Shown here: positions 4,548 through 64,000 of the stretch, piece by piece
How positions within the stretch are numbered: position 1 is the stretch's first letter
Layout: every line of letters begins with the position of its first letter
From: Pezizomycotina sp. ARF18
Lineage: Eukaryota > Ascomycota
Length of the DNA stretch: 64,000 nucleotides
Direction: 5' to 3'
Assembly: GCA_002224055.1 (NCBI GenBank)
Contig: AZLU01000003.1
Coordinates: 410,252-474,251, forward strand
Translations under genes and position numbers: made by a program
The notes under the pieces: generated by a model
Told to the model about the DNA's origin: nothing
Databases searched by the model: none
The model's input: only the letters and a program-made list of their open reading frames with translations

Positions 4548-6479
4548 ATGGCGACCGCCGTTCTAACAGGCGACTACGACTTCCACCCGGGAGAGCTAGC
4601 GATGCAACGCCTCCTCCGCGTGCCCCTCTCCGAAAACCCCACGATCCCGTACCTTCCGCCGCAAGTAGCGTACTTCCTCTCCACGTGTCCCTCACGATAC
4701 TGGGACGCTGTCACCCGACGGTATGCCGTGGGTATCCATCGTCGGCGGAGCCCCGGATACGCTATGGCCGTCGGCGACGGAAAAATTGCCATGCGGGTTG
4801 ACGTCCCGGCTTGCGATCCGCTAGTTACAGATCTGAAAGAGTGGGATGGGAAGGGAAGGGGAAGGGGAAGGGGAAGGGAAGGGATGGTGGCGGGTTGGGG
4901 CTTGATTTGGAGAAGAGACGGAGGGTGAAGTTTTCGGGAGGAGCGAGAGGGGGTGGAGGAGTACGTATACTTTATCAGTCCATGACCCATTCAGCACTTT
5001 GCCTCGTTTAACCCCTGTCAATACCCTAAGGCGTCGCTATAGGATTTATACTGACGTATTTGATCGTGCCGCAGAAATCCAAAACGACGGCTCTACCTCG
5101 TCCATCGGCTTCATCCTCCAAGTCACCGAACCCTCGGAAACTGCCCCAAATACATAACGACCCGGCACATCGTTCTCACACCCACCTCTCCAACGATCCA
5201 CCCGAACCCACTACCCCTACCGGACTCCGCCGTCTCCCTAATCTCCCGCAGCGACATAATCTTCGTCTCCTCCCGCACGAGTTCTCAACAATGGACGCCA
5301 ACCACCGCGCGGTCCTCCCGGCTTCGTCCGCGTCCTATCAAACACGCCTGACGAAGTAAGCATAATATGGCCAGAATACTCCGGAAACCGCCTCTACCAA
5401 ACCTCGGAAACTTCAAAGTATCCCCCGTAGCAGGCGTAACGATACCGGACTTTGATACTGGCGACGTAATATACCTCACGGGTAAAGCTGATGTATTAGT
5501 GGGTAAAGCCGCCGACGACGTACTACCGCGGTCCAACCTCGCCGTAAAGCTCACCGTGACACAAGCGCGGTATGTTACGGACGGGTTGACGGCGCGCGGA
5601 AATTCATGGATTATTCACCGTATAATCACCCGTGCGCTACCTCATGAGTGAAAAGGTTGACGCGCTTAAAGCCACCGAGGGCGCGACGTCGCTGGGCGAG
5701 GCGAAGCTGGTTAACGTCGAGAAAATCGGAAGGGATGCGGCGAAGTTTACATTCGAATTAGAGATGGGTAAAAAGATGGAGTGGAAGGCAGGACAGTACG
5801 TCGCGCTCAGCTTGTTCGAGGAGCTGAGTACGGGGTACCATCATATGGCTGACCATGATCCTGCTAGGTATGTAAATCACCCTCCCTCCCTTCACTCCGT
5901 ATAAATAGAAGCTAACGTCTCCCCGCAGTCTAAATGACGACTACATTCGAACCTTCACAATCTCTTCCTCCCCCTCCACCCCTTCCCAATTCTCGATAAC
6001 GATCAAAAAAATCGGCGTAGTAACATCCCACCTCTTCCGCCAATCACCCGTTCCCACCTCAGCATTCCCATCCTCGGCGTTGGTGGTGACTTCATGCCTA
6101 CGCCCAACAGCATATGGGTCGCCGGAGGTGTAGGAATAACACCATTCCTGTCCGCATTTTCCACCCTTTCTGACGATGCAGATGTAGAGGTTATGTGGAG
6201 TATTAATAGTAAGGATATCGAACTGGTTAAACACGTCGTGACGGAGTATTCAAAGATGAAGGAGAAGATTAGTTGTGGGTTACTGGCGGCTGCGGTAGCG
6301 ATGAGGAGGACGTAAAAGGCTTGAGTCTAAAAGAAGTAAATATGAGGAGATTCGAAGAAACAGATTTCAAAGGGAAGGAGAAGGAATGGTGGCTCTGTGC
6401 TTCGAAAGGCGTTCGGGATGCTGTTATTGGGTGGGTTGCAGAGGCGGGGAAAGTACACTATGAGGATTTCGGGTATTGA
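4548..6479 (+). CDS. PNPOx-like / ferredoxin-reductase-like flavoprotein
   Basis: This is a two-part fungal flavoprotein, probably a soluble oxidoreductase of unknown substrate. The N-terminal half reads as an FMN-binding split-barrel domain (pyridoxamine-phosphate-oxidase-like). It contains SPGYAMAVGDGKIAMRV, then ILQV and LGNCPKY around 5110-5160, then the NHRGGPPGFVRV-like stretch near 5305 and YLTGKADVLVG near 5480. The C-terminal half resembles a ferredoxin-NADP-reductase module: WKAGQYVALS near 5800, RTFTISSSPS near 5950, WVAGGVGITPFLSAF near 6115 (NAD(P)-binding), WWLCASKGVRDAVIGWV and a terminal DFGY. Introns lie at about 4961-5073 and 5868-5927, both with CCGCAG acceptors. Several single-base shifts interrupt the frame: near 5306, 5402 (CCC to CC), 5627 and 6273 (TTT to TT). 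In each case the motif resumes at once in the next frame, so sequence error is likelier than gene death. The family call is confident; the reaction is unknown. Confidence 0.85.
4849..4884 (+). repeat. GGGAAG-type purine minisatellite inside the flavoprotein gene
   Basis: About six copies of a 5-6 base unit (GGGAA/GGGGAA) lie in the coding region between the two barrel segments and encode a Lys/Gly/Arg-rich linker. Copy number and run length are easily misread here, which may shift the downstream frame. Confidence 0.8.
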
Positions 6480-6859
6480 TCGGTGCTTTTGAAGAAAAAA
6501 AATTTTATTTGTAGAGCTCGGCCGATTCATCAGTTCGAAGTACGCATAGTCTTTTGTAAATATGGTCCAGAAGGCCTTAAGGAAGGATCGAGAGATAATC
6601 CCAATGATTACTGCCTTGTTCCCAGGTTTCAGACATCTGTAGCATGATTGAAGTATTTCAAACGTACTTATAAGAGTTGAAAGGGTTATACTTTTGTGAT
6701 GTTTAATTTTAGAGTGGCCATTGTAGTAGGAGAGAAAGGATCCCCTAGTATTTTGCACCAGAAGTGATAAGGACCTGAAGAAGCAAAGAAAGAGGTATCC
6801 CAACCTATACCAATAGCGAAATCTAAACACACAAGTGTAATCTACGCACCGAGGCGGAT
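6480..6859. other. 3' flank of the flavoprotein gene
   Basis: AT-rich DNA follows the stop codon. A minus-strand open frame covering 6327-6830 overlaps the C-terminal coding exon antisense and has no recognisable motif, so I treat it as a shadow. No clear terminator signal is visible beyond general A/T richness around 6495-6510. Confidence 0.4.
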
Positions 6860-9800
6860 CGAATGATGCACTTAGATTTCCTTGATAATATATCTTGGGT
6901 GTCGATTATGTTGCTTCACGAGAATGTTTCACGTTTATCGATCGTGAACGAAACAAATCTTTCAATATTCAGGTAGTAGGAGTTAAGTGGTTTCCCAAAC
7001 TGCAACCTGAGAAAAATCTAAGCTCAGTACCGTATTCATGAATATCAGAGGAGTTAAAAAATGCATTTGGATTATTCTGAGATGATGGTTTAAGGCGCTA
7101 TTATACACCTTTCATCATAAAAAGCCGTTCGTCAGTTCGCATGGCCGACCACGAACTCAAATTTAAAGAAATCGTGTAGTTAGGCTAACTCAACCTATAC
7201 CACTCAGTAAATCTAAGCATATCTTTGAATTTCTCTGATGAAGTTGAATTGGAGAACATATTCCATTTGCTATGGAATAGTAGTTAACGGAGCCGTTAAG
7301 CCCCTTTAATTGGAAAATAACCTTTCGTCAATGCATGTGGACGTCAACGAATCGAAATTTCAAAAATCTTGTAACTGAGTTACTTCAGCCTATAGCTAAC
7401 AGGAGATATAAGCATACAGTTGAACTTATCTCATAGAGCTGGATCGAAGTACGTATTCCGATTTTCATGAGGTGGTAGTTTAAGGAGCCATTACGCATCT
7501 TTCTTTAATGAAAATCCTCTTCGTTCAGCGCACGTGGCCGTTTGACGAATTAAAATTTCGAAATTTACAAATTGGTCACCTCAAAATACTGCGGATAGCA
7601 ATTTTTACTATTAGGATGGACCCGCCTCATAGAGCTGGATGCAATGTCGTGTCTATTTTCCGAGTTCGATTGGGTTCGAGGAGCGATTGTGCGCTTTTCA
7701 ACGCAGACAGCTGTTCCTCACACCACGTGGCCGTGAACAAATTAATATTCAAATAAAATGTGTAAATAGACCACCTCAACGCATTTCAGGCAACTGATTT
7801 AACGATGGTTTCAAACTCAGCTCATTAAGCTGAATACAATGGTATGTTTATTTTTGAAGCTCGGGTTTGAGGAGTGATTGTGTAGTTTTAGACGAAAAAA
7901 GCTGTTCGTCAAACCACGTGGCCGACGACGAACTAAACTTTAGCAAATATCTGCGACCAGACTGTCTCAACATACCTCAGGAAGCAAATACAAACACATA
8001 TTCAAATTCGTCGCGTGAAAATGCATTGGAAAGTGAGCTCATCTTTGAAGCCTCAGGGGGATTGGGAGACGCTTGCCCCTTTGCTCCTCATATGTTTAGA
8101 ATCTGATGCCGAGAATCGAGGAACCTCGGGACTAAACCTTTGAATTGTAAGGAATTGGCATCCCCAGCATATAACAACTCAAGATTTCAAGCGCATAGCT
8201 GGATTACACGCAGGGAAAGGCATCCGATTTTATTCTTCGATTCCATTAGAGAGGGTGCTTTAGGAGACAGCTCTCTGCTTGGATCCCAAACCTCTTGCTG
8301 ACCAAAGGACGAGTCAAGCCGACGTATAGCGCTTTTAAGGAGTAGTGTCCTCAACTATGGTAGATGAGAAACTCGAGACCATTTCTACATTCTACTAGCG
8401 AAGGGAAATTTGTTACTGTGTTTAAATTTTTCAGGAAGGGTGGTTAAGACACCCGATTGACATTGCGTTCAGAGTACCTCGTGAAACGTTGACGAAGTAC
8501 AAGGGAAACAACGTACCCGAAGAGGAGTGGTATCTCAAACCATAGTAGAATACAAATCTGCGGATAGATTTGGTTTCAACTCGAGGGCAGGCATCGATTT
8601 ATAAGCTTAGATTCTACCAAAAGGTTCTTTTTAGAATAAGCTATCCGCCTAGATTCAATATTCTCCCTACGAAGCAGTTGAGGATTCGACTGGATTATGC
8701 TAAAAACATTACATGATGAAGAGCCGGTGTCTTAAGCTATGACAGCTGAAAAAGTCAAGCACAAGGCTGAACTCCACCGAGTGAAGCGGTTCCAATTTTG
8801 TGTTTAGATGTTGAGAAGGTGACTTGAGGATCCCTCTACCTATGCCTTCAAGTTCCCCTTACCACTCCAAAATGTGCGACATGAAATCAAGTATAAAGCT
8901 ATACATGTGGCATCCCAACACATCCCGGTTTCTCAATCCAAGCACATCACTAGATTTGACTCGAAGAAGTGCATCAAGTAGCATACTCAGATTTCTTTAA
9001 GATAGTAGTTAGGGCCTCTTTTTAACCTAAATTCTCACTTTTATCAGCGAACGTTACTTAAGTAATGCTTCGTTGACGAATACAAATGAAAATGCTAAAT
9101 TGTGGAGATTATGTATCCTAACTATACCGTACGAAATCATCCGATTACACAGTTTGATTCAGCTCGATGAGCTGCATCGAGTAAGATTCTTAAAAGTTTT
9201 TATCAAGGAAGTTCGGGCTTCGGCAAAATATCGCTAGTCTATAAACCCCAATTCTTATGTGAGCGGCAAGAGTCGACCGTAAGGTCATGAAAAAGACGTA
9301 TCTCAACGTATACTCCGACTTCAATCTGTCTACAACGCTAGATTCTACTCGAAGAAGTGCATCGTGTAGCATGCCCGCATTACTTCAATTCTAGTACTTA
9401 GGACTTCACTGAACCTGAATTTTAACGTTACTGGACGAACGTCTACGACTCGGTAAGGAGTACGAATAGAAATGTGAAATTATGCTAATGAGCAGTCCTA
9501 ACTTATACCGGCTGGAAAAAATAATCACGGAATCAGATCTAGCGAGGAGAGGCGCGCAAGAGGGTATGCTTGGATTTCACTGAAGCGGTGGTTTAGGAAA
9601 CCACATTGATTATATCTTGAAATTCTTAAAAGTCTTAATCCACCATTGGAGATTTGGAGTTTAAGGAGTAGCGGGTAGAAAATGAACTGCTTAACCTACC
9701 TTAGATCTCGAACTAAATACCAGCATTAGATCCCCCAATTCAAGCTGCATCCAAAAATGCGATTAAGTTTGGTTTATAGGATCTGTTGGGAGTAAGATTT

Positions 9801-11335
9801 CCTTGAATTTTCACCTTTCTTGACGAACCAGTTTGCGCGCAGACTAAACAAACCAAATTTCTCAAAGAAGCAAAATCAGGATGTCCCAACATAGGTTAAA
9901 GAAGTAATTCGAGTATATTTTTAAACTCGCCGAGCCAAGCCTCATCGATTAATGCGTTCAAATCCTTAGTATAGTATACTTTGAGAATCATTTTATCTTT
10001 CAGATTTTAATTCGTCAAGTTGGCCTGACGTCGCGCAAACGTAGAACTAACTTAATCAAATCAAGGGAAAACATGATGCTTGAACACAGTACCTCCATGA
10101 AAGTTTTTTAAAGCACAGAATTCCATTGTGCGAGCTGAGCTGCGCCTGGAGGTGCATCATCTACTTTATCTCATCGATAGGCTTTGAGAATAACTAGTTT
10201 TTAATTTGAAAATAGTACGCTCGCGAACTCATTAAATAGCCTAATGTAAAACCTCCAAGGGAAAAGGCGGCTCCCCAAAGTATATTACCCACCAATCAAA
10301 AGCACATTCTCGGGCTCAGCAGACCGCAGTGCATTCAAATTGACCTTTCAGTTATCTTCGGAATATACGTTAAGGATACACCTCTCTAGGCTTAAGTAAA
10401 CGGAATAATATTCGCCGACGGATTATCTTGACGAGCGATTTCTTGAAGAATGAGATGTCTTGACATATATCACAAAGAAATCTAAGGCTGCCATTGGATT
10501 CCTGAGGCTAAGCTGCGTTGAGATCTGCCATTCGCTTAGCTCTCCGGTATATGTTAAGTGTACCTCCTTTGCGCTTAAGCAGGACGGAATAACTGTTCGT
10601 CGATGGATTACCTTCACCAGACGATTTGGAAAGAATAGGATACCTCAACATACACCCAGATACGAATCCAAACCCACCACTGGACTCCTCAAACCAGAGT
10701 GCATTCGAATATATCCTTTGATTATCTCTCTAATATACGTTAATGATACATCCCTTTAAGCAAGTGGACGGAACAACTTTTGCCGACGGATTACCTTTGA
10801 CGAATGAATTCTTTAAGAATGAGATGTTTTAACATATGTCATGGAGAAAATCCGACGCTGCCATTGGATTCCTGAGGGCAAGGTGTATTAGAATACATAT
10901 TTCCACTGCTTCATCAGGGTATGATGAGGAGTCATTTTCTGTGGGTTAACTCGGAGCGTTGCTGTTCCTCGACGAACCAGTTCTAACGCATAACCACCTG
11001 GTGAAGGAAGCGTCCGAACCCACTTCCAATTGGAGATCCAAATCCATAGTCCAATGACTTAGTTCAAGACACATCTCAATATAATTTTGATTTATCTCTC
11101 GAAGATATTTCAAGAATAAGCCGCTCGCCAAATTTTTCTTTACCCGTTAACGGAGCAACTGATTAACTGACGAACATCATTTTAAGAAGAATGGGATATC
11201 TTAACATATGCTATATTGAAAACCTAGCTCTACTTTCTGATTCCAGAGAGCCAGGCGCGTTAGAATTTGTCATAGAGCTGACTTGAGGTTGTAGGTTGGG
11301 AATCGAGCCCATATCGTTCATTTTTTGGATCGGCC
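6860..11335. repeat. decayed tandem array, period about 183-196 bp
   Basis: Anchors recur at a nucleosome-like spacing. A cgt-ca...catggccg/cacgtggccg block begins at about 7131, 7326, 7522, 7712 and 7903. A tcgaagaagtgcatc-type block occurs at about 8951, 9151 and 9338. A cggaataact-type block occurs at about 10401, 10584, 10769, 10952 and 11151. A ctcaacata-like core (variants cctcaacctata, tcctaactatac, ttaacatatg) recurs through the whole span, so I read it as one family of about 23 units that have drifted far apart. The DNA is AT-rich and no unit keeps a long open frame. Heavy drift suggests an old array that is no longer homogenised. The outer limits are approximate. Confidence 0.75.
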
Positions 11336-11568
11336 TGGCTGTATACAAAGTACTAATACTTTTCAACGTCTTATTTATAGAACACACGCACGGTACTTGC
11401 TTGTTCATTGAATATTGACTCGCTCGCAAGAGTGTTTACTCCAATTCGTTTATAGCATGGAGATGCAGTAATTATTCTGAAGTAGCAGGGCCCCTATGTT
11501 TTATATAAGCTAGATGGGTCGTTTTATACAAAATATCTACAAATTTAAATATCCCCTATGCTATAATA
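11336..11568. other. intergenic, 3' side of hem3
   Basis: AT-rich sequence lies between the tandem array and the hem3 stop codon. No gene is seen. It probably includes the hem3 3' untranslated region, which is transcribed leftward. Confidence 0.5.
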
Positions 11569-12745
11569 TCAGTCCGTCTTCGGTCCACCTTGCTCCGCGA
11601 TCTTCCCTGCGGAAGAAAGTTCCACCGCCTCCCTGATCTCCTTCAATATCGTATCCCCACCGCCTTCCAGCAGCTTCTTCGCAACCTGAATACCCAACGC
11701 CTCCGCACTGTCATAACCTTTATCCTCGGGTAATTCGACCTCCGCTTCCCTCTAATTTCTTTACTCCCGTTGGGTCTCGTAATACTTGCGATAAGCTTTA
11801 ATATCCTCTTCTCGCTATCAAAGGAGCTATGAACGCCGATGGGCGCCGAGCAACCACCCTGTAGGTACCGCAGGAGCGACCGCTCGGAGAGGATGCGGTA
11901 CATGGTAGGTTTGTCGTTGACGGCGTCGAGGAGCTGCCGGACCTGATCGGGGTCGTCGAGGCGGGATTCGATGCCCAGCGCGCCTTGGCCGACGGCGTGG
12001 AGGTATGTGGGCGGTAGGAGGCGGTCTGTTATGCGGTGTTGCAGGTTGAGGCGGTTTAGGCCTGCCGAGGCGAGGAGGATGCAGGAGTACTCGGAGTCGG
12101 GCGCATCGAGTTTCGAGAGGCGGGTGTCGCTGGAGTATTACTCGGGATGTTAGCAAGAGTCTTATCTCGAGTGATTCTTTTTACTTTTTTTTTTTTTTTT
12201 TTTCTTTTTTTTTTTATAGGTAATCACAGAAAAACTTACATATTCCCCCTGCACTCTTTAAACTCCAACCCTGGAAACAGGTACTTCAATTGCGCCTTCC
12301 TCCTCGTGCTGCTCGTTCCCACGACGCTACCCGCCGGTAAGTCCTTCAAGCTCTTGTACCCGCTATCCTTCCGCGCGACGAACGCATCCGTCGGATCTTC
12401 CCGCTCGCTGACGGCACCGAGCACGCAACCCTCCGGGAGCACGGTCGGCATGTCCTTCAGGCTGTGCACTATTATGTCCAGGTTTCCCGCTAGCATAGCT
12501 TCTTCGATTTCCTGCGTCCATAATGATTTTCCGGCGTCTGAAGGGGCGATTTTGGAGAAAGGGGCGGACTTGTTGGCGTCGCCTTTTACCATTACGGTTT
12601 CGATTGCGAATGATAGGTTCGGGAATGCGGCGGAGAGCTTTGAGGTTACCGCGTTGGCTTGGGCTAGTGCTAGCAGCGACTTGCGGGAGCCGATGCGGAT
12701 GTCCGCGGAGGCGTCGGTGGAGGTAGGGGCGTCGGTGGAGCTCAT
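11569..12745 (-). CDS. hem3: porphobilinogen deaminase (hydroxymethylbilane synthase)
   Basis: The enzyme joins four porphobilinogen units into hydroxymethylbilane, the third enzyme step specific to haem synthesis; in fungi it is cytosolic. Exon 1 (12745-12240) carries RIGSRKSLLALAQA, the catalytic-Asp motif HSLKDMPTVLPEGC, and GTSSTRRKAQL, which binds the growing chain. Exon 2 (12129-11569) carries RLSKLDAPDSEYSCILLAS, HAVGQGALGIE and LQGGCSAPIG with the cysteine that holds the dipyrromethane cofactor. The intron 12239-12130 has a GTAAGT donor and a CTCCAG acceptor, and splicing restores the RGN-I-DTRL junction. The exons total 1067 nt, one base short of a whole number of codons. The frame slips near 11755, after which VELPEDKGYDSAEALGIQ continues to the TGA at 11569. 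With one added base the protein is about 355 aa, normal for the family. The gene is essential, so this is probably a sequencing indel. Confidence 0.95.
12130..12239 (-). other. hem3 intron with a long homopolymeric tract
   Basis: This 110-bp GT-AG intron has its donor at 12239 and its acceptor at 12131-12130. Most of its left half (12186-12215) is a T run on the + strand, which is a poly-A run in the pre-mRNA. A GCTAAC branch-like site lies about 20 bases before the acceptor. Confidence 0.85.
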
Positions 12746-14800
12746 CGTGGCTAGGTCAATTGGTACTGGTTGAAGTGGGGGAATTGCAGGGAGAGATCGT
12801 GAAGTTGAAGCTCTACAAGTGGGATGGTTTTTCGAAGGTGGGATGTTGGGATGAAAATTTCAAGCGTTTGAGTTTTGGCGGGGTGCGAAACTTTCTGCCG
12901 CGGAGAGATCATTGCGCGCAACGACACGTCCCCCGACATTTTCATGTGACAAGCAAGAAGCTCCTCGCTGTGAGCTTTTGGTCCTAATCGCGATACTTAA
13001 GGATCACGGTGAGAGCATCATTACATTGGCATAGTCGGTGCGACGTTCTTATTATATGATAATAGTCTTGGTAACTTGGTATTCTTTCCGTTTATTAATT
13101 TTTCTTTTTTTTTTCTTCTTTTTAATTTTCGGTCCTTTACCACTGGCCTTTCACAGTCGTCGTGGTCATCCTCTTCATCGCTACCTGGTATTTAATGCTT
13201 TTATCGAGCTCGATATGCACCCCGAAGCTTTGGCCTTATTATCCTTCGGCGTTCATTTCCACTAGCTTCTTCCTTGAAGACTTAAGCTTGTTCAATCCTC
13301 TTTCTGGCTTTGGTAAAGGGGTCCGAGCTATAAATGACGAACGGCTAGTTAGTATAGCCTTCCATTGCTCCCTTCCTTGTCCTTCACCTCAAAGACAAAG
13401 TCATTTAAAGCATTCCGCACATATTTATATGAAATTAAGTGATCACTACTTCAGAATGATGCGAGCTATAAAAGAGGCGGAGCGCAGCTGGTAAGGAAGA
13501 AATAAAGTCATATCCGCGCTCAAGCTAACTTTACTCCCTGCTTTAAAGTTCTGCCTTAAATCTCCAGCCAATTCTGAGAGCTAAAATGTTGGTTCAGTTT
13601 ATCGTTGAGCTCCGAAACAATTACCAAGCTTTCTCGCAACCATGATATCTCCAAACGACTCTTAGAGCCGTTTCAGGTCGCTTAAAAGTCTGCTCGCTAC
13701 CATCGACAGGTTTTTTTTAAGCTGGGTAACAGAGCAGACGAAACGCGGCACAAGGGCAGGACAGGAATTCGTATCCATTACACCGCATCGCCGTTGGTAC
13801 GGCGCGCCGGAACTCCAGATTCCAAGATCTACCCTAGAAGAGAAGTTTTTTTCTCCAAGGCATGGGTATCCGATCTTCTAGGTTTCAACAAGGGTTACGC
13901 TAGTTTTATCCGCAGGGAGGAACCCTTTTTTCTCCTCGCTCCCCAGGAATTGGAGTCGTGGTATGCTCTGCCACAGGAATTCCTGGGATGTAACTAGGTC
14001 AATATACCTGCATTACGCAGCTGTTTCGCAGAAGTGTGTTTCAATTTCTTCTCCGGTTAACAGCTCTGGATCGTTAGTAAGTTAGGATTTTATCAGCTCT
14101 CATATTTCTTTTCGATGGGAGAAACGCGGAGTATATCATTATCTCCATGTCATCCGTTCCCACCAGGCAGGAATACTCCTGACTAACTTCTCCGCCTTGT
14201 TTATTAAAAAAAAAAAAAAAAAACGTCACGTCTCCCCGATGGCCTCGAAGCAGTATATTGTCTGATATGAGCACAGCGTGCGTTGCGCCCTTTTTTTAAG
14301 GTGGCTGGAGTGTTTTGTTTCAGCCGGGAAAGTTTTCAGCGATCATCCTTAGAGAAAGATTCCCGGCTTCTACATTGTTTCGTGAAACACCCACGTGTAC
14401 CACGCGATTTTGCAGAGTATTTTTGGTAAGTGGGACATACCTGTTTCGGTCGAATTCACGGAATACTAATAGTATTATTATGATCTTCGTCTTATTATTA
14501 ATTCCCTGAACCATATTTTGAAATTTTTCTAGGATAGCTTTGTGGTCACAGGATATCCAGGTAATCAACTGATTACACTTACCAAAGGCAAACATCTTTT
14601 TCAAACGCTCGTATCCATTCCTATGTTCGATATAAAATTATTATCGTTTTCAAATACGGAAACGTTATTCAACCGTGGTACTCGGACTACCCCGAGCAAA
14701 AAAGGTGGAAAACCTGGAATACGATCCTATAGAAGTACAACGCATGTTTCACAGTTTCCATGAGACAATAGATGACGGAGGTTCCTCGTTTAAATTTCCC
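12746..14800. other. intergenic, no gene recognised
   Basis: This stretch contains the hem3 upstream region (right of 12745) and T-rich blocks near 13098-13130. It also has an A18 run at 14206-14223 and several short open frames without motifs, such as 13794-13997. Nothing here supports a gene call. Confidence 0.5.
14206..14223. repeat. A18 homopolymer
   Basis: Uninterrupted A run on the + strand. Confidence 0.9.
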
Positions 14801-14814
14801 CCTTGCAATTAATT

Positions 14815-16500: not shown

Positions 16501-16550
16501 TTATGTTTACTACCTGATAGCCCCGGAGCAGGTTTACACGGCAGAACTCG

Positions 16551-16778
16551 ATGGAGCTTGTCAAAAAGTGCGCAAAAAGCGGTGTCATGAGCTTTGTTCT
16601 CGGTGATAGTTTCCGGCTCTCCCCACATTTTCGAAACATAATGCTGGAATTTTATAGGTTCCGAATGTTGGAAAAGGTTTTCGGAGATTACCAGCTCATT
16701 GCGCAAGAATTATATTTTCCCCAGTTAGAAGGGAAATATCATTTCATGTATATCCCAGAATGCATCGAATTAACATGA
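16551..16778 (+). CDS. unrecognised 75-aa open frame
   Basis: The predicted peptide is mixed hydrophobic and charged and reads like a folded-protein fragment (for example VMSFVLGDSFRLSPHFRN), but I recognise no domain. It lies just right of the 14.8-16.5 kb repeat cluster. It could be a gene remnant or chance. Confidence 0.15.
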   Translation: MELVKKCAKSGVMSFVLGDSFRLSPHFRNIMLEFYRFRMLEKVFGDYQLIAQELYFPQLEGKYHFMYIPECIELT

Positions 16779-17159
16779 AAAATGGATCCTCTGGTTTTTC
16801 TCTTAATAATAACAACTTGCAGGGGGAACTAATAATTAATCGGAGATATTCTCAACCAACAGACTCTCTCGCTCGGGCGGAAGTTGCTTGTTTGCTGCCG
16901 GCAATTTAAACGGCGCCGCTCGGCCAATTCTCACAGAACAGGAAATCGAGCCCTTTCAAGCTTCGGTACTGTTTTGCGATTCGCAGGAAGTCTTTTTTGC
17001 TCCCGCCTACTTTTACTCCGAAGGAAGATTCGATCACCCGGCAGTTTTGCTGCCATGTGGAAAAAAAAAAGCTTGGAATAATAAGCTCTAATACCACTGT
17101 CAACTAAATCGTGAGAACTACCGATAATAATCTTTTACTTTCGAATTTTGGAGCCTGGG

Positions 17160-17180
17160 AAAAAAAAAAAAAAAAAAAAA
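17160..17180. repeat. A21 homopolymer
   Basis: Uninterrupted A run on the + strand. Confidence 0.9.
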
Positions 17181-19850: not shown

Positions 19851-19851
<1 letters not shown>

Positions 19852-20302: not shown

Positions 20303-21697
20303 TTAAACTTGTGCTTCTTCTCCGCTCCGGGAGTCATGCTGCGGCTGTGGGAAGGGTCCTCGTCTCGACGAGGTTGTTGTGCGTGCAGTGAGGATGCGGT
20401 AGGCTTTGCTGAAGAAGATTTTGGCTGGGGGGATGGATGCGCAGATGATGCCGATGCAGATTTCGAGCTGGCCCACATTCCTGGTTCGAAGATGGCCCCT
20501 GTGAAATAGTGCGTTAATACGATGAGCAAGACAAGGTATCGTCGAAAGGCTTCTTGCAAACTTACAGGTAAGGTCGTAGCCGTTGAGAACCGCATGCAAC
20601 GACACCATCCTCATGATAGGACAAAAGCAAGCCACTCCTCCAACGAGGAACATGACGATAATAGTTGCCTTCTTCTTGTTAGGGACCTTCAAGTGCCATC
20701 TACTTTAAGCGGTAGGCGAGCAGAAGGATATCTAAGATGACATGCGTAATGCCGAAGGCATAGAACAGACTCCCAAGGTCAAGCACCGTGGTTGGCTATT
20801 CAAGCGGACTCCCAGGTCTATCGAGGCCAACGGAGGGTCGCATTGTAACCCAAATACGAGCTCGGCGATAACAAAATACGCAATGTGGAAGACGAAGAAC
20901 GCATCGAGGACGCGCTGGAGGTAGTTCTTTTCGGAATAATGCGCCGGTACATGAACAGGATCGAAAGCTTGACCAAAAATATCCGACGATGTAACCAGCA
21001 ATATGAAAGTATATTAACTGCGAAAGGTTATGTTAGTTGTTGGGCATGATGATATATCGTTATCTGGAGATTATCTCGCTCACCTTGAATGTTATTGCGA
21101 TTTGTTGCGGTGTTGCGTCCCAAACGTGCTTTCCAACTCCGCCGTATGCCATTACTAAATTTCCATTATTAGTATAGTGTTCTCGCAGCGAGAAAATGGA
21201 AGGTGGATTTAATTTCTTACAGCAAAAGTTCGTGGCTGCGAAAAGAATTGTGGCCAACTTTGAAAAGTAGGCTATATTAGTATAGAGTGTTCATGTTAAC
21301 AAGGGAATAGGCACCTTACCATCGCAGCTATTATCAGCCAGTCGTCGATGCCGAAGTTCTTCATGATGAATGATCGACTGTATAACCGGCATATCACCGT
21401 AAGGAAAGCCAGTCCGAAAGTGACCGCAATTATAACGTTGAACTCGCCGCTTTTATCGGGAGGAAGATAGTCTATATATCGAAACATCAGTAAGGGAATT
21501 GGTCCAGTCAACAAAATAGCAGCACGAGAAAACTTACTAGGGTTGGCCATCCATGGTGGGAGAAAATCCGAAGGCACATTCTTTATAAGACCTGCTGCCT
21601 CTGCTTTTTTCGAAAAGTCGAGCAGCCAGAGCGCGTGCTCTATTGATGTATTAAAGCCCGCTGTAGCCATCACCACGGCATGGTTATTCCTCTCCAA
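20303..21697 (-). CDS. rhodopsin-domain (SAT4/PTH11-like) integral membrane protein
   Basis: This is a fungal seven-helix plasma-membrane protein family with receptor-like members; the ligand and function are unknown. The first exon (from ATG at 21697) gives an N-terminal segment, then EFNVIIAVTFGLAFLTVICR (a membrane helix) and the family motif GIDDWLIIAA. Later exons give AYGGVGKHVWDATPQQ (family GxGxHxWD), LVTSSDIF, NYLQRVLDAFFVFHIAYFV, FGITHVILDILLLA, LKVPNKKKATIIVMFLVGG, IMRMVSLHAVLNGYDLT and finally ICIGIICASIPPA with a basic, Ser/Thr-rich tail ending at 20303. GT-AG introns include 21319-21272, 21220-21155 and one at about 20570-20510 that joins DLT-W-AIFEPGMW. Several single-base shifts occur; one is a CCC read as CC at 20470-20471, and restoring it links GMW to QLEICIG. 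The alternative start MATAG, 9 codons in, is possible. Confidence 0.85.

Positions 21698-26524: not shown

Positions 26525-26566
<42 letters not shown>
26525..26566. repeat. A42 homopolymer
   Basis: The longest uninterrupted A run in the window. Confidence 0.9.
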
Positions 26567-31022: not shown

Positions 31023-34000
31023 ATGTCGTCAAACTTGATGGCGAATAGTGATGCAGTGGGCAGCGACGAGCTCACGGCGCAATACATTGTGGACCATGTC
31101 TTCATGCCTCCGAGGTTGCAGAACCTTAGCGAAAGCATAGATGACGAAACGTACGGAAACATGTCTATCCTGAAGCACCTGCTGGCTGCTGCGGAGGCCT
31201 TCGGAAGGGAACTTTCCAATGCGAAGAGGCCGGCTTGGAAGCATGTGGTCAAGATGATTGAAAGGGCAAAGTACCACTACGGCGTGTCTGAGGAATGGCT
31301 TATCTCAAAGTCTGTTGAGGAGGACTTACGCAAAATGGACAAGCAAGGTAAGTTACTTATCGACGAATCCCTCGCCAGTCTGCTTAACGAAATGCCAGCT
31401 TACTGATAATAATGTCTAAAAAATCCCTCACTTATAGACTCCCTCGTGTTCCATTTGAGGAGCCAGAATGCGGGCGTTATTATCCACGCGGAGGCTGAAA
31501 AAGCGATCTTCGAGCTCTTTGAAGTTTCGCCGCCTCCCGAGAAGGTGCTTGAATCTAGCGGCCGCGTTGTCAGGTCATTCCCCGGACCGCAGTTCTCTGT
31601 CGTCAATAGCAAATTCACGGACGCCAATTTTCGAAAGGAACTCTCTGTGTACCTATCATCCATGGACCAGGACAGCTTTGACAGGACCGTCGAGGAAAAC
31701 AAGAACCCTAAAGACATTGGTAACGTTAGTCCCATGATGGTTACTTCGATGCTCAGCGGGATACTGCACGCCGTTGGCAAACCTCTTGTCAATAATAAGC
31801 GCATTTCAAAGCGCACGCAGGACGATGTTGTTTCTACAGAGAAGAAAGTTTGGAGGAGGTCCCCCTCTGGATGGTGATCCGCGTGGCCCTCCAGACAAAT
31901 ATCCTTCGTTTATACGGGGATGTCATCGGTCGTAAGAAAGCGGGGCGCTTTATAAGTCCTTCGTAATTTTCTTTTTGACGCGCCTCCTATCCAAGTTGCA
32001 TGCCAAAGTCAATAGCGAATACGCGCACGCAATGCTGGTGAAAATCGCCAGGAGGATGAACAAGCTTGGGGAGCTCGATGTTGAAAGCTGCGCCCTTACG
32101 GCAGTCCTCGATGTTACGACCAGTGTGAGCGATAACCTGGATAGTGTATGGTATCATGTCCAGAGGCACGATGCGCCAAATCTCCCCTGGAACCCACAAG
32201 CCCTTTCTATTAGAGACGACTGCAACCTGAAATTGGAGCAATCAGGGCAGTATATCCTTTCAGCCCTTAAACGAGAGGCTCCTGACTTGCAGGTTCAACA
32301 TCCCGCATTCAAGCCGAATCATCCTCCAAGACTTGGAAACACCCTCCTGGAGCTCGTGAAGACACTCAAGCAAGGCGATGTCCGTACGGCCTTATTCGAT
32401 ATCGAGCAGTATGTTGCCTATTACTTTTAGGGACCTGATTTCCACGCTTCCAGAAGATGAGGTGGAAATCATGTGCACCCAGCTGGCGACATTATTCAAG
32501 GAGTACTTTTACACTGCGCTCCAGATTTACAAAGATAACCCGGAGAATACCTCTATTGCTTTCTTGACCGGCCTCAACATCTGAATGCAGCTCGACAGTT
32601 TGGTGGTTTCCCATTGCCGTTTGTTGAGCGAGTACCCGACCCAGGTACCCTACGGCTTCTTTGAGTACCTGTTGCTGCCGGGCGAATCCCACATGCGCCG
32701 CTTGGCTGAGATCATGCACTATATCAAGAACCGGGATAAGAAAGCCGCCAACCACAACTATCCCGCATTCTCTCAGACAAGCTCGACAAGGAGAACAGCT
32801 TCGGTGCCCGGTATTACGATGAACAGGTATTACCAGAAGAAAGATCAGGAAATCCAGAAGGAAGCACAAAAGCAGCGCGATGAGCGCATTAAAGAAATAG
32901 CTGAGAAGAACAAGAGATACCAAGAACTCTCGGAAGAGGCGAGCGCCTTGGAGTGCGCCTATGGCTATGTCGACAGAAGGAAGAGGAAGTCTACGGATTG
33001 TCGAAAGTGCACGATCGGCAATGAACTCAAAGCCATGAACTTGGCCAGGCACGAGTGGCCACTTCCTGAAGACGAAAATGAAGGAAGGTGGTACTATTCG
33101 AGTTAGATTTGCCGCCCTTCTTCGCCGCTTGGCGAGATACCACCCTACATCTTTTGGTGGATACTTCAGCTGTGATCACATACCCTGAAAATCACAAACA
33201 GCTGAAAATGGCGAGGAGCCTCGAGGACTATTTACCACTGGAGGGCCAATTCGTCCGACATGGTTCCGTAATGCTCGGCTCAAGGACTAACGCAGCACAG
33301 ACGACGAATCTGGGGACGGTCCGAGTACCCGCAGAAGAAGACAAGGTGATCTTCAAACACGCCTTGAAATACAAACTGTTCTTCTCGACGAAGGACACAA
33401 AGATGATCAAGAGGGCGGGAACTGGGTAATGGATCTTCTGGACCCGGTTTCGGCGCGCGTTGGAAGCCAGAGCGGTTCGTCTACAAGCTCCAAGGCCCCT
33501 ACCGCTGCCTCCAGTTTGCGATGGGTACCAGTCACACTTCAAACGATGTTCTGGCGAGGCAGTCCACGGCTTCCAAGGAGCTGTCACTTCACGAATTCTA
33601 AGCTTTGGAACTCTAAGGTCCGGATTCAGGAATCAATGGCTCAACATCTACCGAGAGCTCTGGACCAGGACCCTCAATTTTTCTGACGAGGCCGTTAATG
33701 CGCTTATCCTCCAAGCAATCTGGGAAGCTGGCCCGGCTGCGGATAACTCCGATTTCCGAAGGGAGGTCCACAGAGTCTTAGACCGCAACGACTTCGCCTT
33801 GAGTGTCCTCAAGGTGGTTGAAGAATTCCTAGCAAGCGTCGCAGGAAAACTGGATGGAAGTTATCACGGCTTCGACCTCATCGCGCTGACATGCCGCATT
33901 TTCGCCTTCTCCAAGCACCTAGACGTCGACGCAGCCGCGATCGAGATTCTCAGGAAGCTCCGCTTCGTCGTCCATAGATGGATCCTGGACCACCGCGAGC

Positions 34001-37000
34001 GATCGCATCACGCTGAAGGGGAAGAGGAAATGGCCGGCATCATGGAGAGGATGCTTCACGCGAGCGCCGTTTGCCGGATGACCTTCGAAGTGCCAGACGC
34101 GAACCTGTCACAGGTCTTCGATGAAGAGTCAGTGCGGTGTACATCGAGTGCGGCGCGATCATTTGCGACAACACCCCCACCGCCACGAGAGTATTTATTT
34201 GAATGTTTTACTCGAAAGGGATCGAAGACTGGCTCATCGTCTCGAGGAGCTCGTTAGGAGACGCATCTTGGCGGACTGCCACGCAATTGACATCGCGATT
34301 GTAGGCTCTGGCCGGATTACAGTCCCGGGTCGGCTTGGAAGGAGTTTCCGTCACCCAACGACCGCTGGGTAGAATCTCGTACTAAGGACATCGTGGCTCC
34401 GGTCCTCAACGGTTTGTTGTAACATCTTGGACGGGAATCTCCTCGTCGATCATCCCTCGTAGACTCCCCAAACAGATCACAGAAGATGAAACTTTCGTCC
34501 GTCTTTTCGGCAGAGCTATTCTCAACGTCGGTCCGTCGGATGACGACATGATGCAATTCCAAACCATTTTCAAGATTCGACAACGTTACTCGGTAAGCTA
34601 CTTTCATAAAAAAGATTTTCTTAAAAAAAAAGAAAAAAGCTGTCCTTCATGTTATATTCTCAGCTACTAACATATTTTAATAGGCGTACTTTGCTGTCAT
34701 TGAAGGCCAGCTTGTTATCAGAATCAAAGATGAAAAGGGGACCTTTGAACTCATCCCTCATTCGAAATTGAGGGGAGACCTCCCCGATCCTTTAGTCGAT
34801 TCGTTCTTCCATTGGGCTCACATCGGTAAAGGGGTTGTCGAGCTTCGTCCTATGGATTCCAGGTGGGATCAGACCGAAGCAGCTGGCGCTCAAGCTTGGG
34901 CGCAAATAGAATGAAAATGGGCAGTGGCAATGTCTATCTGGTCGATATCAAGAGCGGAACCGCGGCAGCGGTGAGCAATATCTTATCGCTCTTGAGGATG
35001 CCAACCAGATTGTAGTCACTGCAACAATCTCTGGCGATAGTAGTACGCAGTCGACATCGAGCTCCCCAGAATGAACCTCAAGTTTTTCGACAATGGGCCG
35101 GATCGCTTCAGTGCAGCACGCTGCAGGGTATGATCATTGACCAGGACCAGACGTGCGGGACCTTTGTCGGATTGGCAACAAACTGGTCCTTCGCGGGCTA
35201 GACGACCAGAGCCACAGGGTCATTCTGGTCCCCTACGGAGAAATCTCGGCATCTCGCAGCCAATACCATACGAAGATAACAGTTTGTGCCAATGCGGAGC
35301 AAAACACTAGGCGTATATGAATATCGAATCGACAGCATCTTGGGTAGGCTCGTTAGCAATGGGTCTCTCGTCGGTCGGCTCTATCAGATTCTACTCCACG
35401 CTTACACATCGTCCTTCACGTGCCGCGAGGATCCGCTCACTGCCGCTCCGGAACGGAGGAAGCGCTTTGCCTGTTGACTTCCGCGGCGACTATATCGTTC
35501 CACACTCTTGAGGCGAGGAGCTCGAATTGCTCTCGGAAATCGCCAAGTTAACTCCTCGTCGCAGCAGGGAATCCCCTAAAGGAAGTCCACAAGTCGTCGA
35601 TTGCACGAAACCATACCCTTTACGTGTCAGAGAGTGGATTTCGCGCACAATGTCACTTCCATCTTTGAGTACTGGAGGCGACTTAGATCCCTTCAGGTGA
35701 AGAGGATCCAGAGACGGAAGAGGTTGACCTGGAGCAGCTCTTCAACCGCGGCGACCAGGAAATGCTAATTCGCGCCCTCATCTCCGAGTCTCATTGGTAC
35801 TCCGTTTGGTGTCCGCCCGAAAATATCCTTGAAGGCGACGATAACAGCTACTCGGGCCGCGAATACTCCGCCGAATCTGAAAGGGGTTCCGGGAGCAGAA
35901 AGTCTACCGAGTAGCGACGCCGATCGGGGACTGGCGCTGGGATCAAGTCAGCGGCCTCAGGCTCTGGGAAGCTTTCGAACAGGAAACCTGGAAACCGTTC
36001 ATCGGTGCGAAGGAGAGTTTCACTCTTGCCCAGGACCGGCTCTTGCACGAGGCACCGCTGCAAGAGTTCTGGTGCTCGCTGTACTCGACTTTGAGGCGGG
36101 CTTCTTCGAACGATAAATATACCGTGATGTTCTGTCTAGCCGCGTTGGCGATGAGGTCAAATATTGGGATATATATGGTGTACGCGCTGGCGGCCGCCGC
36201 GACCGATAACGAATTCACGAAGAGGATATACAAGTTACGGTTCATCCAAACTATGACCTCTCCTTTGGAACCAAATTAGATAGGGAGCGTCTGAAGGAGA
36301 AGATTATGGTAAGCTCCGAGAATATCCAGAAATACTAAACTTTCACGATATACTAATAATAATATAGGAGTGCGTCATTCCATATGACGAGGCCGAAGAG
36401 CTATTAGATTCAAGCGACGAGGAAGATGAAATCGACGATGAAAAGAAGGCGCGGAGGCTGTACGTGACCAAGCGCCGCAACCAAGTCGAGGACATGGAGC
36501 TCAAGAAGGCATCGTGGACTTCTATATGAAACAGTGGCCGGTTCTGCAGCCGGCCGCTTTCCCCAATACGTTCGATCTTATCAGCAGGAAGGCCGTTACT
36601 CGCAAGATCTTCCCTATGTTTGCAAACACCTTCAAAAATTACGAGCTCAACAGGGCCGTCAAGAACATACAAAGAAGGCTCAACGAGCTCGACAGCTTGC
36701 CATGGGGAGTTATTGATAAACCTTCCTTCTAGTACAAGCTCCCGGCGAAGCGAAAACCATCTGATTACGCGATGACCACATTCAAGCATCTATTTGCGCC
36801 TGAGCAGGGTCCCATGCTGGACGATGGCCCGCCGCCTCTGACGCTAGACGACTTCCCGACGCAGAGTGTATCGGCAAACCACGGGACGGAGAACGCCGGA
36901 CTTGAAGAGCTGGTGCGATCCGTACGTGAAGGCGGGCTTGATTTCAATGATCAGTATGCTATTAAGCTCGAAGAGAGCGTTAGCGCTCTTGCGTCGTATG

Positions 37001-40000
37001 ACGATCGCATATGTGAATTACAGCCTGACCTCGGGATCCTCGAGCCTCACGCTAAGAGTTGCTCAGAGCACGTGAAACGTCTCTTCGCGAAACTCGAGAT
37101 TGCATCTGAGCCTCAGTGGGAAACTGAGTCAGTGATGAAGAAAGGAGGCTTGTGGCCACACCTATCTCCGGTTTGGGTTTTATCCCTTCTGAATCACAAG
37201 AATAGAGATGGCCTTTGCCCAACTTGGAAGGAAGCTATTACGGTATACGGGAAGCTATCGCGAGAGCAAATAGAGCTAACGGCTGCTCTACTATGGAAAG
37301 TCGGGCCAGGTGCAAGCGTTGATTCAAGAGTTGAGGAACGTAGGTCACGAGGCGTTTTCGCCTCTCGACCGTCCAGACTGGTTTCTGCTCGAGATCAAGT
37401 ACAACATCTTCATCAGGGACGTCCAAGCGGAGATCGCCAGCCAGATGCTGGATCCGCCGTCGAAGTCGAACGCAGTTATGCAGCTCAACATGGGCGAAGG
37501 GAAGTCTTCGGTGATTGTTCCGATCATCGCCTCTACTATCGCCGACGGAATACATTGGCGAGGGTCATCGTCTTGAGGCCGCTACTCCGCGAAATGTTTA
37601 ATCTCTTGGTGGCAAAGTTGGGAATATCAGCAACCGGCGCATTTTCCACCTCCCGTTTTCTCGCGGGTAGACGTCCACAAGGATAACGTTGCTGCCATCA
37701 GAGAGATCTACGAGGATGTAAGTATTCCTTTTTTTCCTATTTTGATCTCGGTTACTGCGAGCTAGTGCTTGCGTTCTTCCTTTTCACTATCATCCGTGAC
37801 TATGCTGAAAGATTGCTAACACAAAAACTTAACAGTGTATCAAAGAGCGCGGTATCCTCCTGGTCCGGCCTGAGGATATTTTGTCATTCAAGCTTATCGG
37901 TCTTGAAAAACTCTTCACGGGTCGGGCCGTGGAAGAAGACAAGATGGACGAGGACAACGATGGCGAAAAGACAGACGGCACCGCTGACCTTCTCGAGACG
38001 CAAAAGTGGCTTGAAGACTGCAGTCGGGATATCTTGGATGAATCAGACGAGATTCTTCATCCAAGTACCAACTAATCTACACCGTCGGCCTGCAGCAGCC
38101 CTTTGAAGGTTCGCCAGATCGTTGGACAATCACCGAAGAGGTTCTTGGACTTCTGGCTCGCTGTGCAAAGGAAATCATGCAGGCTTATCCGAACGGAATT
38201 GAGATGGAAGATCGCGGATCGACTTCGTTCCCCTATGTACGTATCCTTCAGGACGAAGCCGGCGATTGCCTTCTTGAAACCGTTGCTCAGCGAATTTTCG
38301 CCGAGAGCCCATTGAGTAACGTCGCATTAGATGTTTTAAAACCGAATTCAAAGAATCCGTCTATCGCTTCGTTACGGAAGAGAATCCTCCGATGGAAGTA
38401 CTCACGCAGATATCCGCGGAGGATAAAGGGCACGACCTGTGGAGAGCGATTCTCTTGCTTCGTGGTCTGTTCGCGAACGGTCTTTTGCGCTTCGCGCTCA
38501 AGTCGAAGCGATACAGGGTGGATTACGGGCACGACTTTTCGAGAACGCGGGTCGCGGTACCTTACAAGGCGAAGGACGTACCTGGACCGGCCGATTTTGC
38601 ACAGCCGGATGTGCTACTTCTCCTCACGTGCCTGTCCTACTATTACTCCGGCTTGACGGAAGAGAATTTGGTCAAATGCTTCCAGGAATTGAATAGCTCG
38701 GACAATCTATAGTTGAATACGAAGCCTGGATTAAAGACTGCCCTGAAATCCCGGACTTCTTGCGAGAGCTGAAAGGTTAGTTGTATAAATCACTGAACTT
38801 ATTGTAATACATGCTAACTGGACTTATAGGCGTCAATATCGAGGACCGTAGGCAGCGGGACAGACACCTTGTCCCCCTCTTCAGCACAACAGGGCCGTTA
38901 TCGACTTTTATATGAATGTTGCGTCTTTCCGAAGGAAGCCAAACAGTATCCCTACAAGCTGTCGACGTCCGGCTGGACATCGCAGCCAAGAAGGCCAATA
39001 TCACGAGTGGCTTTTCGGGTACGAACGACAACCGATATCTTCTCCCACTGTCGATCCAGCAGGAGGATCTCAAGAAGCACATCCATACCAACGCCCTGAT
39101 ACTTCGTTACCTCTTGCAACCGGAGAACAATCACTTCCTGCACCTAACCAATGACGACGGTGCGCGCATGACCATCGGTACATCTTCAATTCGATCATCG
39201 CTCAGCAGCCTGAAGTCTCAGTCCTCCTCGACGTCGGTGCGCAAGTCGTCGAACTTTCGAATACCGAGGTAGCCAGGCTTTGGCTTTCGAAATTGCCGGA
39301 AGGCTTGCACAAACAGGCTGCTATTTTCTTCAACTCCAAAGACGAATTGTGCGTGGTCGACAGGCACGGGTTGAGCTCTTGATGGTTTCCAACTACTCCA
39401 AGAAAATGGACAAGTGCGTTGTTTATCTCGACGATGCTCACACTCGCGGTATTGACCTCAAGCTCCGCTGGGTACTCGCGGAATGGTAACCTTGGGTCCA
39501 AAGACGACAAAGGACAGGCTTTTACAAGGTGAAGATTTTCCTCCTTGTGTTAACATTACATTTCTAATTCGTCTTTGCTAACTGTACTGTTTAATAGGTT
39601 GTATGAGGCTAGGCAAGCTTGGCAGGGCCAATCCGTGCTGTTTGCCGCACCGACGGAAATTCAGGATGCGATTCTAGCCACGGCAAAGAAACCTCCCAGG
39701 GGAACCGTCGAATCCATCGACGTCCTTCGGTGGTCGATGCTTGCAACCTGCCAACAGACAGTCGAAAACTTAGGGCTTTGGGCATCTCAAGGCATCGACT
39801 ACGTCGTCCGCGAACTCTACTGGGCCGAGTATATGGCCGTACCGGACAAGATTGATAAGCACATTCGCGCCCTCCGCGAAAATTTCCTGGAGAAGGAAAA
39901 TAAATCTCTCGAGGACCTCTACGCAAACAAAGGCACGCCAACCGTCTTTGAGAAGACCAACAAGGTCTACGAGACGTATGGGATGTGGATTCTAGGATAA

Positions 40001-41815: not shown

Positions 41816-41854
<39 letters not shown>

Positions 41855-48735: not shown

Positions 48736-48738
<3 letters not shown>

Positions 48739-48777
<39 letters not shown>
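48739..48777. repeat. A39 homopolymer
   Basis: Uninterrupted A run on the + strand. Confidence 0.9.
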
Positions 48778-48779
<2 letters not shown>

Positions 48780-48989: not shown

Positions 48990-49165
48990 GTCCAAGGTAT
49001 TTATTTAAATAGCGACCGGGGTGCCCCTCTTTTTCCCTTGAGGATCATCATCCACTGTTGAAAATTTTGTAAACTTCATCTTCTCTGCCTCTATACTTCC
49101 CGAGTTATCGCCTTCATCTCATTTCATCACTTATCTCCTTAACTCTTCTACAAAAGACATTCGCA
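48990..49165 (+). promoter_or_regulatory. cysD promoter and leader
   Basis: A TATA-like tatttatttaaatag lies at about 48998. It is followed by CT-rich leader DNA from about 49075, ending in attcgcaATGgcc at the start codon. The CT-rich block before the ATG is typical of well-expressed genes in filamentous fungi. I did not find a convincing sulfur-regulator site. Confidence 0.45.
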
Positions 49166-51236
<2,071 letters not shown>

Positions 51237-61980: not shown

Positions 61981-64000
61981 GTACTTATACATGCCACCTA
62001 TATTCCAACCCATAGGTTTTGGCAGTGGTGATGCACGGTAGGACTGTTGGGAACTGTTCTGGCTCTGTCTTACGGGTATGGGTATGGGACGTGCGTACCT
62101 TCCCGACTCATGATCAGGAGAGGGGTATAGTTCATGGTATTGTAGCTGCGAAGAGGTATACGCGCTGCCGTGGAACGCACTTCCTACTACGTCCCGCAGC
62201 CCCGCGGGTGAAATTGCGCGTGCGCAAGCTGAGGGTCGAAGAACCCGGCGGCGGTCTCGTGGGATGCCCTGCGGGGAAGGTTGCTGAAACGGAGGAAAGA
62301 ACTGCGGCGGTGCGCCGGGACTGGGTCCCCATACCTGACCTCTGGAAAATATTGTACATGTACGGGGTTTGCAGGCCCCAGTAGCTACCGGACGGCGGCG
62401 CGTCTCGATAAGTATTCGTGGCAGATTGCGCTTGTGCCTGCGTTTGTCCGATACTGGGGCGAGGATCGGTCGCAGGCTGCTGGCTCCTCCTTGGCTAAAC
62501 GAAGCCGAAGAGACCTGGACGGTCTGTTCGGCACTCATCTCGTAGACGTACGATTGTCCGCCGTACCCTGATTCTCGGTGTTGCTGCTGCTGCTGCTCTG
62601 CTCTTCGTCGCTCGCGCTTGTAAATTGCTCCGGAGGTGAAAGCGAATGGGTAACGTTACTGTCGGCTTTCGGATGAGTTCTGCGGTTATCATCTACCCGC
62701 GACTTCTCGTCCGGCACCGCGGATACTGCAGAACGAGCAGGCTCGCTAACGAACTCGGATCCCCGACGCTGCGCTGGCCCTCATTACGATATCTGTGAAG
62801 GTTTGCGACAGTCATCCCCCGGGAGCTCGGATATGGCTAGCACCTGAGCTCTTTGCCCGAGCAATTTTACCTCGTAGCCTCTAGTATTGTTTATCCCGTC
62901 AAAGCTACTCGATTGGAGCGCCCGATGACGCGAGCCACCAACGGATTTTATCCGACCGTCGGTCGTACCGTTGCCCTTCAAAAGTCGCGATCGCGGATCT
63001 TGCGATTGGAGCCTCGGAGAATTCATCGTAACGAGGAATATCCGCATCATTTCTGCGGCGTCCACGGGCGACGGGGGTTGCTTCTGTTCTATCAGGAATG
63101 ACATCACATCGGCTGCCAACGCCCAGAGCGTGTTTCCGAAAGCGGAACTTTCTGGCTTAGCAACGCTCCGGAGGAGATACGAAAGGGTATCGGATCGAGC
63201 CTGGAGTGGAACACCTTCCAAGTCTGCCAGCCCTTTTATGGCTACGGCAGCGACTGCAAATCGCGAGTGAGATCCGAGCGTGCTAAGGCTACTCGCTGTT
63301 CGAAGGTATTGGACAAGCCCTTCTCTGGCGGCGGTGCAGAACAAAGTAACGCGCGGGAGGAGCTGCAGGTAGCCAGGACACTCCTTAGCTATATCCTGCA
63401 GCCCGTACAGGAGCACGGACCAATTGCAGGAGGAGATTCTTGCAGCGACGGTAGCTGAGAGTTCCAGGAAGCATTTTCCTGTGCTGGTACATCGTCCCAT
63501 CGACATGTTGAACCATTCGCTCTAGATCGGCGTCCGACAGGTTAGGCCCCCTGCAAAGGGCAAAGATATTGCGGACCCAGCGGAAAGTGTCGTCCGCGAG
63601 GAAACGAACTCCCACCGGGAGACGTCCTGGGATTTCAGCATCGAAATCGACGCCCGGCAAAGGGCGAGTACCAACTTCATTTGAGGCCGCGCTGCAACCC
63701 GGCGGCAGATTTCGCTCAAGACGTCTTCAGAGAGGATGAATTCGGCGACGGTTCGGTGTAAATACTGCACAAAGGGAATTTGAAAGTTTCCGCGCCACAC
63801 GCCGCTGCTGCGGAGGCGTCGATACACGTGCCCACGGAGTCATGGGCATCGGCGCGTTGTAAACTTCAAGCAGGCCGCAACACCGGCTCCTAATGCGTGC
63901 TTCTATATGATCGCGCTTCCACTTCGCGGTCACCACATCCAGGGCCTCCGGCTCGGCATGAATTGCCTCCGGCGTAAATTCACGTAGCGAGCGCCAGAGT
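61980..64000 (-). CDS. C-terminal part of a NACHT/DUF7791-type NLR-like protein (cut by window edge)
   Basis: Fungal NLR-like proteins act in self/non-self recognition; the N-terminal effector and NACHT domains would lie right of 64000. The visible start, LWRSLREFTPEAIHAEPEAL, runs into KWKRDHIEARIRSRCCGLLE and then, after a slip near 63830, FQIPFVQYLHRTVAEFIL. This order (RIxSRCCGLLEV followed by xYLHRTVxxFL) marks the DUF7791-type region after the NACHT ATPase. Further slips near 63620 and 63480 lead into a helical region (SVLLYGLQDIAKECPGYLQL to about 62784). A low-complexity tail rich in Ser, Pro and Gln follows, with QFFPPFQQPSPQGIP and YTSSQLQYHELYPSPDHES, to about 61980. The exact stop is unclear, because one frame continues into an A/T run. 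The tail belonging to the same gene is inferred from strand and spacing. Confidence 0.65.

What the first reader, a model, noticed from the sequence alone, without database searches (positions are those of the whole stretch)
4548..64000. Single-base homopolymer slips in every conserved gene: probable assembly error, not mass pseudogenisation
In hem3, cysD, the flavoprotein, the rhodopsin-type protein, the DUF3638 protein and the NLR-like gene, the frame breaks by one base and the family motif resumes at once. Placed cases are nearly all one base missing from a short run: GCT(T)TAG at 49831, CCCC at 50489, GGG at 50799, TT at 6273, CC at 5402, CC at 20470 (minus), and G runs at 31942 and 41051. 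The hem3 exons sum to 1067 nt, exactly one base short. Gene loss would give larger deletions, stops and mixed indel signs, and would spare essential genes. Annotation pipelines would mislabel these genes as broken.
Basis: partly seen in the sequence, partly recalled or inferred. Interest (0 to 1): 0.75.

Follow-up and report, generated by a model that had tools for sequence, protein, structure and literature searches.

The report
Assembly errors mimicking broken fungal genes
The broken-looking genes in this stretch of a fungal genome are almost certainly sequencing and assembly mistakes, because essential genes on other contigs are broken in the same way at about the same rate, so this is an ordinary data-quality problem and not a biological discovery.

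Summary
The window is part of a 46.4 Mb, 408-contig fungal assembly. The frame breaks are real in the given sequence but not peculiar to this locus. Nine genes (cysD and hem3 in the window; RPB2 and six CCT chaperonin subunits elsewhere) were aligned to solved relatives with a frameshift- and intron-aware aligner. Nine of nine are broken: 49 frame changes in 10,572 coding bases (4.6 per kb), 41 of 49 of the one-base-missing class, no in-frame stops. Intact controls gave 0.07-0.21 per kb. Five of seven Hsp70-type loci add 18 changes, 15 in that direction. No slippage motif. Four rDNA copies differ mostly by single-base run lengths.

The homopolymer part is only partly so: at coding breaks, runs of three or more are no commoner than chance, though rDNA differences are nearly all in runs. 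The flavoprotein and NLR-like genes were not confirmed by Pfam. No reads were available. A known kind of artefact, low interest.

The parts
11569..12745 (-). hem3-like gene (porphobilinogen deaminase), two exons 12745-12240 and 12129-11569, one frame change at about 11.70-11.76 kb; intron 12239-12130 holds an A-rich tract
   Evidence: PF01379 and PF03900 in two frames; translation; alignment to solved PBGD
49655..51146 (+). cysD/MET17-like O-acetylhomoserine sulfhydrylase: 5 introns and 7 frame changes with FUB7 as reference (near 49829, 50300, 50493, 50786-50799, 50830, 51062, 51133); N-terminal part upstream not aligned
   Evidence: PF01053 in three frames; FUB7 and Met17 alignment
31086..38628 (+). 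DUF6606/DUF3638/DUF3645 protein with domains over three frames; DUF3638 itself lies in two frames, so at least one frame change or an intron lies inside it
   Evidence: Pfam matches per frame; no reference aligned, so individual breaks not placed
20408..20929 (-). fungal rhodopsin domain protein (PF20684), profile 88-236 of 237
   Evidence: break at 20470 not tested
   Evidence: motif resemblance to ferredoxin-reductase-like domains is recalled, not tested

Best explanation
The frame breaks are consensus errors of an insufficiently polished assembly, most likely from noisy long reads. Single bases were dropped, and less often added, at about 4-5 per kb in the nuclear genes, so most genes read as two or more frames although the living gene is intact. 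Shown: the breaks exist, occur on eight contigs, are mostly one-base losses, leave codon content intact (no stops called) and are spread evenly. Inferred: that reads would not contain them, that long reads were used, and that the lower rate in the mitochondrial pieces reflects deeper coverage.
For: Nine of nine genes are broken, 49 frame changes in 10,572 nt. By frame class 41 of 49 are -1/+2; by the aligner's own choice 40 are -1. No in-frame stop in 3,524 codons; this is helped by the aligner, which pays 12 for a stop and 15 for a frameshift, and two stops appear at a frameshift penalty of 35. Raising the penalty from 15 to 20, 25 and 35 leaves 44, 42 and 31 breaks, with the -1/+2 class still in front, 33 of 42 and 24 of 31 at the last two. 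The false-positive rate on back-translated intact genes with real introns is 0.07, 0.09 and 0.21 per kb. Hsp70-type genes: 18 frame changes at gaps too short for introns, 15 of 18 in the -1 class, in 5 of 7 loci; the other two loci had at most 2 pieces. Breaks fit one common rate across genes (heterogeneity p 0.44) and lie evenly along the proteins (KS p 0.16). Mitochondrial coding sequence: 2 frame changes, both in nad2, in roughly 2.5 kb read by eye (6 of the 13 profile matches), against 11.6 expected, P 0.0007, indicative only. Four rDNA copies, six pairwise comparisons that are not independent: 64 one-base length differences, 5 longer ones and 11 substitutions; 63 of the 64 are in runs of 3 or more, where 27% of the bases lie. 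Frameshifts that make genes look like pseudogenes are a described effect of long-read-only assemblies (PMC8812927 and PMC12007338, passages seen).
Against: No reads were available. Homopolymer association, usual for long-read errors, is not seen at the coding breaks. Perfect A and T runs up to 42 bases are present, which some long-read methods would shorten (recalled). The mitochondrial contig is not free of breaks (nad2), and seven of its 13 profile matches, some with TAA or TAG inside, were not examined. rDNA copy differences could be partly real. The nine genes were chosen because references could be had, not at random.
Confidence: 0.97

Rival explanations
1. Mass pseudogenisation of this region or genome, with the genes dead and decaying.
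For: Frames are broken in each of the nine genes aligned.
Against: Essential genes on seven other contigs are broken equally. No in-frame stop is called in 3,524 codons and 48-77% identity is kept. All 23 introns found start GT, end AG and are 59-121 nt long; the aligner accepts only GT (or a rare GC form) to AG introns of 40-400 nt, so this is weak support. No second DNA copy of the cysD region was found in the assembly.
Confidence: 0.01
2. Programmed ribosomal frameshifting used throughout the genome, as in some ciliates (recalled comparison).
For: Frame changes keep the protein continuous and favour one direction.
Against: Of 40 -1 sites, 1 has an X XXY YYZ heptamer within 24 nt (null mean 0.5). 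No shared 4-, 5- or 6-mer exceeds chance. Counts per gene are as for random events.
Confidence: 0.005
3. Insertional RNA editing restores single bases in nuclear transcripts.
For: About five frame changes per kb, mostly single-base losses, in otherwise conserved genes; the genome sequence alone cannot exclude it.
Against: No motif; rDNA copies also differ by single-base run lengths; a minority of changes go the other way (8 of 49). No such system is known to me for fungal nuclear genes (recalled, no literature search made for this).
Confidence: 0.005
4. Repeat-induced point mutation damaged the region.
For: It is an ascomycete process that breaks fungal genes (recalled).
Against: RIP makes C-to-T changes, not single-base losses (recalled). 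The window's TA/AT index exceeds 1 in only 1 of 32 bins and the composite index is above zero in only 2 of 32 bins.
Confidence: 0.005

Closest known systems
Residual indel errors of long-read-only assemblies (Polypolish paper PMC8812927 and Kastor paper PMC12007338, passages seen; Watson and Warr 2019 seen only as a cited reference in PMC8812927)
   Same: Single-base indels spread over the assembly break reading frames and inflate apparent pseudogenes.
   Different: Those papers stress homopolymers; here runs of 3 or more are not enriched at coding breaks. The rate, 4.6 per kb of coding sequence, is higher than the below 0.05% of the genome given in the Kastor abstract for its example.
True fungal pseudogenes
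   Same: Broken reading frames.
   Different: No stops called, breaks nearly all of one or two bases, constraint kept, essential genes included.

Membership tests
Consensus error of an under-polished long-read assembly | Breaks occur in essential genes across the assembly, not only at one locus | tested here: met
   9 of 9 genes on 8 contigs; 5 of 7 Hsp70-type loci
Consensus error of an under-polished long-read assembly | Single-base indels far outnumber damaging substitutions | tested here: met
   49 frame changes against 0 in-frame stops in 3,524 codons (31 against 2 at the strictest penalty); rDNA copies 64 one-base differences against 11 substitutions
Consensus error of an under-polished long-read assembly | Bias toward lost bases | tested here: met
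   41 of 49 in the -1/+2 class; 15 of 18 in Hsp70-type genes
Consensus error of an under-polished long-read assembly | Concentration in homopolymers | tested here: inconclusive
   Not at coding breaks (low power for doublets); 63 of 64 rDNA one-base differences lie in runs of 3 or more
Consensus error of an under-polished long-read assembly | Fewer errors where copy number and coverage are high | tested here: inconclusive
   Mitochondrial pieces 2 in about 2.5 kb, 6 of 13 matches examined; coverage itself could not be seen
Consensus error of an under-polished long-read assembly | Raw or accurate reads lack the indels | not testable with these tools
   No reads held
Pseudogene | Stops, larger deletions and relaxed constraint | tested here: not met
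   No stops called; identity 0.48-0.77; 44 of 49 breaks called as one base and 5 as two
Programmed frameshifting | Shared slippery site at the breaks | tested here: not met
   1 of 40 sites, null mean 0.5; no enriched k-mer

The most novel reading that the evidence does not exclude
The genome really lacks about four to five bases per kb of coding sequence and the cell puts them back in RNA, or reads across them, in nuclear genes throughout. The sequence alone does not strictly exclude this; accurate reads would.
Probability: 0.005. Interest if true: 0.95.

Novelty: not a real feature. Interest (0 to 1): 0.08.

Why it matters
Anyone annotating this assembly would count most genes as broken, miss domains and infer false gene loss. 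The practical value is a warning, with a measured rate of about 4.6 frame-breaking errors per kb in nine genes, that gene-level claims from this genome need accurate reads first.

Tried and rejected
RIP as a cause: rejected on dinucleotide indices. A redundant intact copy of the cysD region in the assembly: none found. Slippery-site and k-mer enrichment at breaks: none. Homopolymer enrichment at coding breaks: a first null (33 events, p 0.08 for runs of 3 or more) ignored that a deletion shortens its own run, so it was replaced by simulated deletions; neither is significant. Pfam scans for the flavoprotein and NLR-like gene gave nothing over cut-off; a scan of 21.5-31 kb plus strand was empty. 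Eight chaperonin loci were found and six aligned; the C53 plus-strand locus and C70 were not. Actin- and tubulin-family matches and the Rpb2-type loci on C15 and C236 were not aligned or identified. Naming the organism: the ITS was read but I did not recognise it. One literature search returned nothing. C257 as an error-free control was dropped: one open frame of 879 aa is intact, but its second Rpb2-like region lies in two overlapping frames. Mitochondrial genes as a clean control were weakened by two breaks in nad2.

Full report
What was examined. The window is G000:C3:410252-474251 of a 46,361,250-base, 408-contig assembly. Its genes have spliceosomal introns, their closest solved relatives are mostly fungal (FUB7, yeast CCT, fission yeast RPB2; organism names partly recalled), and the assembly carries a mitochondrial contig and an rDNA array, so I take it to be a fungus. 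I did not identify the species.

The breaks are in the sequence. cysD-like PF01053 matches fall in three frames, hem3-like PF01379/PF03900 in two, and DUF6606/DUF3638/DUF3645 over three (introns not excluded there). The fungal rhodopsin domain is there. The flavoprotein and the NLR-like gene could not be confirmed by Pfam. The named local contexts are present at eight of eight coordinates. Three of the eight (49831, 50489, 50799) were confirmed as frame changes against FUB7 and yeast Met17; five were not tested.

The breaks are genome-wide. I wrote a protein-to-DNA aligner that allows introns and frame changes and applied it to nine genes with references taken from solved structures. The genes were chosen because references could be had, not at random; six of eight chaperonin loci found were used. 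Per gene: cysD 7 changes in 1,059 nt; hem3 1 in 891; CCT3 3 in 1,419; CCT2 5 in 1,239; CCT4 5 in 1,203; RPB2 12 in 1,782; CCT5 7 in 1,218; CCT8 5 in 789; CCT6 4 in 972. The total is 49 in 10,572 nt, 4.63 per kb, with no in-frame stop in 3,524 codons. The aligner's choices were -1 (40), -2 (4), +1 (4), +2 (1). Only the class modulo three is certain: 41 of 49 against 8 of 49.

Controls. Intact back-translated genes with real introns gave 2 calls in 21.6 kb, 1 in 14.9 kb and 2 in 9.7 kb. Stricter penalties of 20, 25 and 35 left 44, 42 and 31 breaks; in-frame stops were 0, 0 and 2. A second method, using only the coordinates of Hsp70 profile matches at gaps too short for an intron, gave 15 changes of the -1 class and 3 of the +1 class in 5 of 7 loci.

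Pattern. Breaks are even along proteins (KS p 0.16), fit one rate across genes (p 0.44), and share no slippery heptamer or k-mer. Near 36 of the 40 -1 events (four with wider placement dropped) the longest run averages 2.17 bases, compared with 2.28 for random deletions, 2.16 for losses from runs of 2 or more, 2.46 for runs of 3 or more and 3.17 for runs of 4 or more. Loss mainly from runs of 4 or more is therefore rejected, while loss from doublets cannot be told from random loss; misplacement of breaks by the distant references would also blur a homopolymer signal. In the window, G/C runs of 5 or more are slightly fewer than a first-order model expects, 49 against about 62.

High-copy DNA. 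nad4, cox1 and nad5 pieces in contig C50 read through without a break, but nad2 has two; by eye that is 2 in roughly 2.5 kb, against 11.6 expected at the nuclear rate, P 0.0007. Only 6 of the 13 mitochondrial profile matches were looked at, so this is indicative. Four rDNA copies (8-kb stretches, partly masked) differ pairwise by 64 one-base length differences, 5 longer ones and 11 substitutions over six comparisons that are not independent; 63 of the 64 lie in runs of 3 or more. Part of that could be real variation.

Conclusion. Essential genes cannot be dead, the remaining codons show constraint, and the pattern is close to random one-base loss. Consensus error is by far the simplest account and is a described effect of long-read-only assemblies (passages of PMC8812927; passages of PMC12007338). 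The read technology and coverage are inferred.

Noticed in passing
window 26525-26566, 48739-48777, 41817-41853, 50170-50198 and others: Sixteen A/T runs of 16 bases or more in 64 kb, where a first-order model expects none; two of them lie in the hem3 and cysD introns. Perfect runs up to 42 bases.
   Followed up: partly
G000:C50 (231,088 bases; L027-L031, L076-L078, L085): Mitochondrial contig of 231 kb with cox1 pieces spread from about 136 to 206 kb and a further match at 91.8 kb: a very large mitogenome or a mis-join.
   Followed up: partly
G000:C257 (L038, L040, L041): AT-rich stretches (GC 0.35-0.36) with an unbroken 879-aa frame weakly like RNA polymerase subunit Rpb2 (best solved matches 4qiw_B, E 5e-15, and RPC2 5fj8_B, E 2e-14) and a second similar region; possibly a linear plasmid or virus-like element, not tested.
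   Followed up: partly
G000:C189: Tandem rDNA array with units about 10.87 kb apart; 5.8S found at four places, one below the cut-off.
   Followed up: partly
window 31086-38628: Large DUF6606/DUF3638/DUF3645 protein, families of unknown function.
   Followed up: no
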